Under the pieces are notes generated by a model that did no database searches, was not told the DNA's origin, and saw only the letters and a program-made list of their open reading frames with translations. DNA of 64,000 bases from Gaertneriomyces semiglobifer. Taxonomy: Eukaryota; Chytridiomycota; Chytridiomycetes; Spizellomycetales; Spizellomycetaceae. Made by a program: the position numbers and the translations under genes. The DNA lies in contig JAHLKF010000015.1 in assembly GCA_025558075.1 (NCBI GenBank), positions 186,001 through 250,000 of the forward strand. The letters run 5' to 3'. Numbering within the stretch: position 1 is the stretch's first letter; the number at the start of each line of letters is the position of its first letter. Shown one piece after another: positions 61,378-64,000 of this stretch.

Positions 61378-63601
61378 CTAGTTTTCCAGAATGACCCGGC
61401 TGGTTGACTTTCCGGCCAGCAAATCAGGGCTCTTCGCTCTGCTAATACTATCTCCGCGACTCATACTAGCCTCTCGGCTACCCCTTTGATCCAAACCTGA
61501 TCCAGATCGCCGCATTCCTTGAGTGTGGTGTTGCTGGAGCGAAAACAGTTCTCGCTGCCTCTCCAGCAACTTTGATAAGATTTGCTGGGTGTCCCGCAAT
61601 CGTTCTTCGAGGGCTAGTCGACCAGCCAGGGATTGTTGGGAACTGGCAAACATTTTGTTGCCAATCCACTTAGCAAGTCTTCCAGAGCTTAGTTTGTCGA
61701 GTCCGTTCTCATGCGAATTCGTATCCTCTTTGTCTTTTCCCAGTTTCGAATTGAGGTCTTCCAAGCTCCTTTGCGCCTCCGCAATGAGAGCCTCTAATTC
61801 TTCTGCCGTAGTACTGTCGAGCTGGTCCGACGCAAGACGCCGTTTGGCTGCAACAGGGTCTGATGATACATATTGGGGAGAAAGGGTAGGTAATGTCGCG
61901 GGAGATCGTCCCGGGAGTTGGGTGTATGGGCGATGTGCACACCCAATGTAGATCTGAAGAACACATATGATTAGACACTGAACACCGTAAAGGCTTAATG
62001 ATCTCATGCTCAAACCTGGCGAGGACGGAAAATCTTGAACTCTGGATCATCCAAACTCTCCAAGCAATGTGCTAAAAAGCCGACAGCCCTAGGTACAGTC
62101 ATCAGAACTGGAAACATATCTTCAGGAAACCCAACGGTGTGAAAGACGATGGCTGTCCAATAATCGCTGTTGGCATAAAGAGACCGCTGCGTGAACCATT
62201 CGTCCGCATGAACTGCCTCCTCAACTTGTATCGCCAACTCGGATATATCATCCCTTCCCATCAGTTCAAAAAGTTCAAATGCGAGCGTACGGATCACATG
62301 AACACGCGGGTCGCCTCGCTTGTATATGCGATGTCCGAATCCCATTAGTCGCAGCGGACGAGAAAGCTTGGAAGCAGAATCAGAAGCAGAACCACCGAAC
62401 TTGACTTTGGTGTTGCCAAGTTTGGACGCATCTGTTTCCTTCCTCTTTACCATTGACAAAAATAGCTGTATCTTTTCCGGTTTAGCGATGGTTTGCAGCA
62501 TGTGAATGACAGCGCTAGCTTTACGTTCGCCGAACAAAGCACCTGCGGCCCCCGACAGAGCAGTATACGGATCCACTCCAGAGGATGTAAGGTGGCGCAT
62601 AAGGACCGTAGAGCAGGCCGATCCGTTCTCAGCTAAGACGATGAACATTTTGTCCAAGATCTTGATCAATCGCGGGTCCGGCCGATAGTCGTCTTCGTTG
62701 AGACGATCCATCATGTAAAGCAGATTCTCAGCATAGGACGAGCACTTGGGCATGGGGTGATTGTAAGGACGACCTAGGCGGTGGTTATAACAGTTTGCGG
62801 CAATCGTGGCGACTTTACCGATGATACGGTTAATGGCTCTATTGCGTGCTTTTCGGACGCTTTGCATCTTTTCTGCTTCTTCTTCGGTGGGTTCGCGACC
62901 GGCAGGGACTTTCGGCATCAAATAAAGATCGACACCATGAAGGGCAGGGTTTGCTTCTGGATGAAAGGTACTGAGCGACGCAATAGTGGCGATGAGCATG
63001 CCGTGAGGGTGAGCATCGAAGCGGAAGGTCGACATCTGTTTCTCTAGTTCAGAATGCAAGTACGTGTGCCTCATAATCGCGTTCGTCCAGTTCTCCAGTT
63101 CGGCTGCGTCTGGTAAGCGGCCATAGATAATCAAGAACGCTGTTTCCAAGAAGTTCCCACGTTCAACAAGTTCTTCAACATCATATCCGCGGTAGTAAAG
63201 TTTCTCGGCTTCAACATCGATGTGCGACACTTTTGAACGGCAGACGGTGGTATTTTTGTAACCAGGATCGTACAGACGGAGTGGTACCAAATCGTCGGGC
63301 AACTCTGCGGGCGGGCAAGTTGGCTTGAGCTTAAGTTGGGTGAACACGGTTCCTGGAATGGTTTTAGATTTTGGGTCGATCGGGATCTTTATGGTTTTCC
63401 CAGAGCGAGGGTCGTGTACGGTCAAGTAGTTGCTGTACATATTCGTACGAGACAGATGGGGGGGAGAGAGAAACAGAACGAAACGGATGCACAGGCAATC
63501 ATTAGATATTGGCACTCTCTCAATAGATACGCTGCGAGACGCTGAACTTACTTGTCCACGTCGCCCGCGACGACAGGCGTTTGAACGCTTTCCGTCGCCA
63601 T
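61378..63601 (-). CDS. Citrate synthase homolog, likely inactive, with long C-terminal extension
   Basis: Three exons (63601-63552, 63432-62016, 61953-61378) give 680 residues, against about 470-510 for usual citrate synthases of this class. The N-terminus MATESVQTPVVAGDVD shows no obvious mitochondrial presequence. The family framework is intact: RLYDPGYKNTTVCRSKVSHI, RGYDVEELVERGNFLETAFL, DAHPHGMLIATIASLSTFHP, NRIIGKVATIAANCYNHRLG, MGFGHRIYKRGDPR, NSDYW and LDDPEFKIFRPRQIYIG. However, the first active-site histidine region, normally LHADHE, reads VLAENG (residues ~282-287), and the second, normally GPLHGGAN, reads GERKASAV (~319-326). The Asp of NSDYW (~440) is kept. A 175-residue tail with heptad-like LEERLRDTQQILSKLLERQ follows. 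Best read as a citrate synthase-fold pseudoenzyme; active alternatives cannot be excluded. Confidence 0.85.
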
Positions 63602-63908: not shown

Positions 63909-64000
63909 ATGACCACCACTGTGGGCCGTCAACGCTCTTTGCAAGCGATTGGGGAGAGCTACGAATCGTTACGCGAGAAGTTCACCAATGCAGGCCAAGG
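63909..64000 (+). CDS. Start of an unidentified gene, cut by window edge
   Basis: An ATG at 63909 opens a frame that runs to the end of the window, 30 codons. It begins MTTTVGRQRSLQAIGESYES and continues with a short helical stretch. No family can be assigned from this fragment. The position after a ~300-base gap divergent from the previous gene fits a true start, but this could be chance. Confidence 0.35.
   Translation, partial: MTTTVGRQRSLQAIGESYESLREKFTNAGQ

What the first reader, a model, noticed from the sequence alone, without database searches (positions are those of the whole stretch)
61378..63601. Citrate synthase homolog lacking both catalytic histidines
The protein keeps the family framework from end to end, including the GFGHR..K..DPR region, the active-site aspartate (NSDYW) and the RPRQIYIG ending. 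Both histidine motifs are lost: the LHADHE position reads VLAENG and the GPLHGGAN position reads GERKASAV. In characterised citrate synthases these two histidines and the aspartate form the catalytic triad. The frame is uninterrupted and the flanks are conserved, so this does not look like decay or a sequencing error. An insertion of about 25 residues (GSASDSASKLSR region) just before MGFGHR is also unusual. I infer a retained non-catalytic or altered-activity paralog.
Basis: partly seen in the sequence, partly recalled or inferred. Interest (0 to 1): 0.78.

Follow-up and report, generated by a model that had tools for sequence, protein, structure and literature searches.

The report
Rebuilt citrate synthase relative of chytrids
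Swimming-spore fungi carry an extra, altered copy of the metabolic enzyme citrate synthase in which the site that handles acetyl-CoA has been changed in the same way in the copies examined, which suggests an old protein that no longer makes citrate and has taken up another job.

Summary
It is not decay. Three protein searches listed 168 different proteins: 49 read GERK where citrate synthases read GPxHGGAN, the other 119 keep that histidine, and none is in between. The 42 named ones come from 41 chytrid and blastoclad species. In 39 of 39 aligned members the acetyl-CoA-activating histidine (E. coli H264) is lysine; H226 and F383 are also lost (0 of 39 each). H305, D362, R314, R387 and R407 are kept in 38 or 39 of 39. 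So the oxaloacetate half of the pocket is kept and the acetyl-CoA half changed. The genome also holds two canonical non-mitochondrial citrate synthases and a mitochondrial-type one. Most likely this is a conserved citrate synthase relative that no longer forms citrate, still binds a dicarboxylate, and acts as a regulator or scaffold. That function is inferred; activity, ligand and expression are untested.

The parts
63552..63601 (-). exon 1: start codon and MATESVQTPVVAGDVD(N); absent from the NCBI protein model (P0001 starts inside what I call intron 1 and exon 2)
   Evidence: GT-AG intron, phase fits; N-terminus resembles ortholog P0002. No transcript seen
62016..63432 (-). exon 2: citrate-synthase domain up to ...RPRQ
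   Evidence: PF00285 match 5e-89 in P0001; ORF of 536 aa; spliced
61378..61953 (-). exon 3: IYIG..., end of the citrate-synthase domain, C-terminal tail and stop
   Evidence: aligns with orthologs
62634..62636 (-). Leu283 at the position of E. coli GltA H226
   Evidence: L 35, I 2, M 1, N 1 of 39 family; H 105 of 105 canonical; place checked
62625..62627 (-). Asn286 at the position of GltA H229 (His in 27 of 39 family members)
62520..62531 (-). GERK (318-321); Lys321 at the position of catalytic GltA H264, followed by a 3-residue deletion
   Evidence: K 39 of 39 family; H 105 of 105 canonical; place checked
62355..62435 (-). insertion (about residues 350-376, TDASKLGNTKVKFGGSASDSASKLSR region) before MGFGHR
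   Evidence: length varies across the family (36-77 residues from the H264 to the H305 position)
62331..62333 (-). His384, position of GltA H305 (triad), retained
   Evidence: H 39 of 39
62304..62306 (-). Arg393, position of GltA R314, retained
   Evidence: R 38 of 39, 1 gap
62163..62165 (-). Asp440, position of GltA D362 (triad), retained
   Evidence: D 38, E 1 of 39
62100..62102 (-). Met461 at the position of GltA F383
   Evidence: F in 0 of 39 family, 105 of 105 canonical
62088..62090 (-). Arg465, position of GltA R387, retained
   Evidence: R 39 of 39
62025..62027 (-). Arg486, position of GltA R407, retained
   Evidence: R 39 of 39
61381..61908 (-). C-terminal tail (about residues 505-680), predicted partly helical, mostly variable in sequence
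   Evidence: helices 524-552 and 584-623 of P0001, low confidence; 3 of 175 columns at least 90% conserved
61390..61428 (-). terminal motif PDLLAGKSTSRVI (residues 665-677)
   Evidence: pattern found in 29 of 38 non-blastoclad members

Best explanation
A conserved family of citrate-synthase-like proteins of zoosporic fungi, related to the non-mitochondrial citrate synthase of eukaryotes. Shown by sequence: an intact citrate-synthase domain; the acetyl-CoA side of the active site altered in one uniform way (H264 to Lys within GERK, three residues deleted, H226 and F383 lost, an insertion before GFGHR); H305, D362 and three arginines kept; no peroxisomal signal by pattern; a long added tail with a conserved end motif in most chytrid members. 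Inferred: it no longer condenses acetyl-CoA with oxaloacetate, still binds oxaloacetate or a similar dicarboxylate, assembles as dimers or rings of dimers like its relatives, and acts in the cytosol as a ligand-responsive regulator or scaffold with the tail as its contact to partners.
Against: No activity, ligand, location, expression or interaction was measured. H305 and D362 are kept, so some chemistry is possible, and an invariant lysine looks like a working residue rather than a dead one. This species has Asn where 27 of 39 have His (H229), so oxaloacetate binding may be weaker here. The tail is poorly predicted (block means of pLDDT 30-73) and mostly variable: 3 of 175 of its columns are at least 90% conserved, against 145 of 445 in the core; three of 39 members have little of it (68, 112 and 118 residues after the R407 position). 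The cytosol claim rests on a pattern test with N-termini taken as annotated.
Confidence: 0.58

Rival explanations
1. A working enzyme with changed chemistry: the invariant lysine takes the place of H264 and, with H305, D362 and the arginines, acts on oxaloacetate or a related keto acid (cleavage, decarboxylation, or condensation with another partner).
For: Glu and Lys of GERK stand in 39 of 39, Arg in all 34 rows of A1; the H305, R387 and R407 positions hold in 39 of 39, D362 and R314 in 38. The residue two after D362 is Trp in 97% of the family and Tyr in 100 of 105 canonical rows.
Against: F383, which packs on the acetyl group, varies freely (M, T, L, Q and others). I know of no characterised member with lysine at H264 (recalled, no call).
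Confidence: 0.19
2. A structural protein: a citrate-synthase body used as a building block for filaments or a scaffold, joined through the tail, with the pocket kept for stability only.
For: Tetrahymena Cit1 is described as a filament-forming citrate synthase (PMC6941865, passage); citrate synthases change assembly often (PMC11615384, passages); the tail is predicted partly helical.
Against: Three arginines kept in 38-39 of 39 members over two phyla argue for a ligand. The tail is mostly variable. No filament evidence.
Confidence: 0.15
3. Still a citrate synthase of low activity, or a regulatory subunit that mixes with the canonical copies.
For: Same fold and about 38-43% identity to the Arabidopsis enzyme; canonical copies exist in the genome.
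Against: H264, H226 and F383 are each lost in 39 of 39 aligned members; no peroxisomal signal by pattern, whereas canonical C2 and its Spizellomyces ortholog P0124 have a PTS2-like start (C2 read by eye).
Confidence: 0.06
4. Pseudogene, gene-model error or assembly error.
For: None found.
Against: 49 proteins with the same change, from many genomes.
Confidence: 0.02

Closest known systems
Eukaryotic non-mitochondrial (glyoxysomal/peroxisomal) citrate synthase, e.g. Arabidopsis CSY3 (9x0i, 9xau, 9xdg) and pineapple nmCS (8qzp)
   Different: Lysine for H264, loss of H226 and F383, 3-residue deletion, insertion, long tail, no peroxisomal signal by pattern
Caulobacter CitA, citrate synthase with a cell-cycle role that does not need catalysis (PMC7083601, abstract and passages seen)
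   Same: A citrate-synthase body that can act without forming citrate (here only proposed)
   Different: CitA is an active enzyme; inactive variants were engineered at H303, which by the paper's numbering matches the GFGH histidine. Here that histidine is kept and H264 is lost by nature
Tetrahymena Cit1, filament-forming citrate synthase (PMC6941865, passage seen)
   Same: Citrate synthase with a non-metabolic use in a eukaryote
   Different: No filament shown here; a ciliate, unrelated lineage

Membership tests
citrate synthase superfamily (PF00285 fold) | Pfam domain above cut-off and citrate-synthase fold | tested here: met
citrate synthase (enzyme) | catalytic triad H264, H305, D362 | tested here: not met
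   K at H264 in 39 of 39; H305 kept in 39 of 39; D362 kept in 38 of 39
citrate synthase (enzyme) | acetyl-contacting F383 | tested here: not met
   F in 0 of 39 family, 105 of 105 canonical
citrate synthase (enzyme) | substrate arginines R314, R387, R407 (role recalled) | tested here: met
   38 (one gap), 39 and 39 of 39
citrate synthase (enzyme) | NCBIfam equivalog cut-off | tested here: not met
   best NF004126 323.9 bits v. 505; TIGR01798 301.2 v. 485.15. Models are for bacterial and archaeal proteins and the canonical fungal copies were not run as a control, so this row weighs little
citrate synthase (enzyme) | forms citrate from acetyl-CoA and oxaloacetate | not testable with these tools
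   needs an assay
peroxisomal non-mitochondrial citrate synthase | PTS1 or PTS2 signal | tested here: not met
   0 of 43 family and not in the 680-aa model; 47 and 8 of 117 canonical by loose patterns; stricter PTS2 pattern 0 of 43 and 45. Pattern test only
regulatory citrate synthase like CitA | biological role independent of catalysis | not testable with these tools
   needs genetics
filament-forming citrate synthase like Tetrahymena Cit1 | assembles into filaments | not testable with these tools
   needs microscopy

The most novel reading that the evidence does not exclude
Zoosporic fungi turned a glyoxylate-cycle type of citrate synthase into a receptor for oxaloacetate or a similar acid: the acetyl-CoA half of the pocket became a fixed Glu-Arg-Lys site, the carboxylate half was kept, and an added tail passes the signal on. 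The gene serves the swimming or settling stage and disappeared on the branch on which terrestrial fungi lost the flagellum.
Probability: 0.2. Interest if true: 0.78.

Novelty: new variant of a known kind. Interest (0 to 1): 0.56.

Why it matters
Citrate synthase is a central enzyme with a very fixed active site: 105 of 105 canonical rows here have every one of the nine residues checked. A family that changed the acetyl-CoA half in one uniform way and kept it so across two phyla gives a clean natural test of how a core enzyme becomes something else. Public records name members 'citrate synthase', 'citrate synthase-like protein' or 'hypothetical protein', so metabolic models of chytrids may count a false citrate synthase. 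If it is a metabolite receptor, it would open a way into carbon sensing in zoospores.

Tried and rejected
Decay, assembly or gene-model error: rejected on 49 proteins with the same change. Only citrate synthase in the genome: rejected; C2 and C4 hold canonical non-mitochondrial types with HADHE, GPxHGGAN and NVDFYS, C18 a mitochondrial type. C26 I take for ATP-citrate lyase only from its 1064-residue frame and partial match; not tested further. Histidine supplied by a neighbour: the only candidate seen in the alignment is the H229 position, which is Asn here and His in 27 of 39.

Circularity: I sorted the family by the letters GERK and the canonical set by GxxHGG, so GERK in the family and His at H264 in the canonical rows are true by choice of rows. 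Not by choice: that each of the 168 falls into one of the two sets, that the two sets part on the tree, and the states at H226, H229, H305, R314, D362, F383, R387 and R407, the insertion and the tail.

Flagellum link: the named members are chytrids or blastoclads, and two non-flagellated Zoopagomycota (Dispira P0104, Tieghemiomyces P0136; placement recalled) appear in the listings only with canonical copies. But this rests on one loss event (flagellum losses: PMC8371127, abstract and passages), and no listed name is from Allomyces, Rozella, aphelids, Olpidium, Neocallimastigomycota or Monoblepharidomycetes, which are mostly flagellated (recalled). The listings were capped and some names cut or missing, so absence cannot be told from missing data; the link stays a lead.

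Literature: ten searches brought up no title or abstract describing this family in the open-access library held; some searches were for active-site numbering and only 31 helped (one found none). One search showed only an 'ATP citrate synthase' entry in the main text of a Batrachochytrium proteomics paper. No structure coordinates were listed in the Python box, so the pocket was judged from alignment, not geometry. The tree root is a midpoint, so the age and direction of the duplication are not claimed. Codon-level selection was not tested. The notebook holds three checkpoint entries.

Rows dropped: alignment A1 used 34 of the 42 members known. The tree used 35 of 43 (dropped by choice P0121, P0009, P0025, P0030, P0054, P0047; by length P0052, P0055) and 28 of 119 canonical plus G. 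semiglobifer C2, C4 and the second half of plant double protein P0026. Residue counts used 39 of 43 (dropped P0052, P0054, P0055, P0121) and 105 of 119 (length limits). The six members entered only the motif count.

Full report
Gene. The finding lies on the minus strand. Two GT-AG introns (63433-63551, 119 bases; 61954-62015, 62 bases) join three exons into 680 residues, from the ATG at 63601 to the stop ending at 61378. Database protein P0001, 'citrate synthase-like protein [Gaertneriomyces semiglobifer]', 666 aa, is identical from residue 18 of my model to the end; it lacks exon 1, which the start of ortholog P0002 supports. The species is a spizellomycetalean chytrid. No transcript was seen.

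Other copies. The genome (20.9 Mb, 66 contigs) has ten PF00285 matches at five places. C2 is an ordinary non-mitochondrial citrate synthase, 86% identical over its main piece to Spizellomyces punctatus P0124; C4 is a second, 64% over its main piece; both have HADHE, GPxHGGAN and NVDFYS. C18 is of the mitochondrial type (GPLHGLAN, GYGHAVLRKTDPR, NVDAHSG). C26 was not examined further. So the gene is an extra copy, not the only citrate synthase. C4 and the finding share an intron right after RPKQ/RPRQ (read by eye).

Family. A search with the protein (5765 hits, best 120 listed), one with a 34-row alignment (967 hits, best 120 listed) and one with the changed region of the Catenaria member (44 hits, all listed) gave 168 different listed proteins. 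Of the 162 from the first two, 43 have GERK and 119 keep a GxxHGG motif (two of the 119 fell outside the pattern and were read by eye); the six new ones all have GERK. Total 49 of 168. Named members: 42 proteins of 41 species, five proteins in Blastocladiomycota and the rest in Chytridiomycota; I looked up four species and placed the others from memory. Members listed are 41-59% identical to the finding, apart from its own record. The sorting is by GERK itself, so its conservation alone proves nothing; the points below do not depend on it.

Tree. With 35 family and 31 canonical rows, one branch with support 100/100 separates the two, found in 100% of 200 bootstrap trees. Within the family the five blastoclads (100/99) and the other 30 rows (100/98) part. 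That fits inheritance by descent from at least the common ancestor of the two phyla. The root is a midpoint, so I do not claim when the copy arose. Branches are longer in the family than between the canonical C2 and P0124.

Active site. I fetched E. coli K-12 gltA to fix the numbering. Without Met, HADHE holds H226 and H229, GPxHGG H264, GFGH H305, DPR R314, NVDFY D362, MAR R387, ARPRQ R407. In 39 family rows: H226 is L 35, I 2, M 1, N 1; H229 is H 27, N 8, Q 2, S 1, G 1; H264 is K 39; H305 is H 39; R314 is R 38 (one gap); D362 is D 38, E 1; F383 is M 17, T 11, L 5 and others, never F; R387 and R407 are R 39. In 105 canonical rows each of these nine is invariant. Of 126 columns at least 97% conserved in canonical rows, 77 keep the same residue in at least 90% of the family. 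Published passages: H264 is called an active residue and D362 catalytic, residues 267-297 move when acetyl-CoA binds, and F383 contacts the acetyl group (PMC11167817); H306 counted with Met, the GFGH histidine, is needed for oxaloacetate binding and activity (PMC7083601). That R314, R387, R407 and H229 hold oxaloacetate is recalled. The pattern is one-sided: the acetyl-CoA half changed, the oxaloacetate half largely kept.

Insertion and tail. From the H264 to the H305 position the family has 36-77 residues (63 here) against 39 in 104 of 105 canonical rows. After R407 it has 68-275 residues, median 195, against 33-101 in the 14 of 105 canonical values printed. The tail is mostly variable: 3 of 175 tail columns of the finding are at least 90% conserved, against 145 of 445 in the core. 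Its end is the exception: a pattern like PDLLAGSxSPRVI is found in 29 of 38 non-blastoclad members, and four of five blastoclads carry a motif like HISDxVDLxxF instead. Non-mitochondrial citrate synthases also have an elongated C-terminus, which in pineapple joins dimers (PMC11615384).

Location. A loose PTS2-like pattern occurs near the start of 47 of 117 canonical proteins and a PTS1-like end in 8, but in 0 of 43 family proteins and not in the 680-aa model; a stricter PTS2 pattern gives 45 and 0. This hints at the cytosol by pattern only, and more than half of the canonical proteins show no signal either.

Interpretation. The uniform lysine, the kept arginines and the loss of F383 fit a protein that no longer joins acetyl-CoA to oxaloacetate but still uses its carboxylate pocket. 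Regulation by a citrate synthase without catalysis is known in Caulobacter, and a filament-forming one in Tetrahymena. I prefer a ligand-responsive regulator or scaffold (0.58), with a new enzyme (0.19) and a structural protein (0.15) as rivals. Nothing here shows activity, ligand, expression or location.

Novelty. Ten searches of the held library brought up no paper describing the family; I judged by listings and read passages of seven papers only, and most subscription journals are not held. Dead enzymes and moonlighting citrate synthases are known kinds; this conserved, uniformly changed family is a new variant.

Noticed in passing
window 63909-64000 (+), L013:3910-5500: A UDP-sugar pyrophosphorylase gene (PF01704, 148.4 bits), probably UDP-N-acetylglucosamine pyrophosphorylase by appearance, starts head to head with the finding about 300 bases away. 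Whether the pair is conserved was not checked.
   Followed up: partly
P0021 and P0029 (Podochytrium sp. JEL0797, contigs both of 127345 bases): Two family members with nearby locus tags, a likely local duplication; both keep GERK.
   Followed up: no
P0121 (Phlyctochytrium planicorne, 1278 aa): Family member joined to a PF00926 domain in the database record; possibly a gene-model fusion.
   Followed up: no
P0026 (Eruca vesicaria, 911 aa): Plant double-length citrate synthase whose first half reads FILLAEHEMN (H226 lost) but keeps GPLHGG: loss of one of the same residues in a plant.
   Followed up: no
G000:C4, L010: A second canonical citrate synthase that falls outside the other fungal copies in the tree and shares the intron after RPRQ with the finding.
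   Followed up: partly
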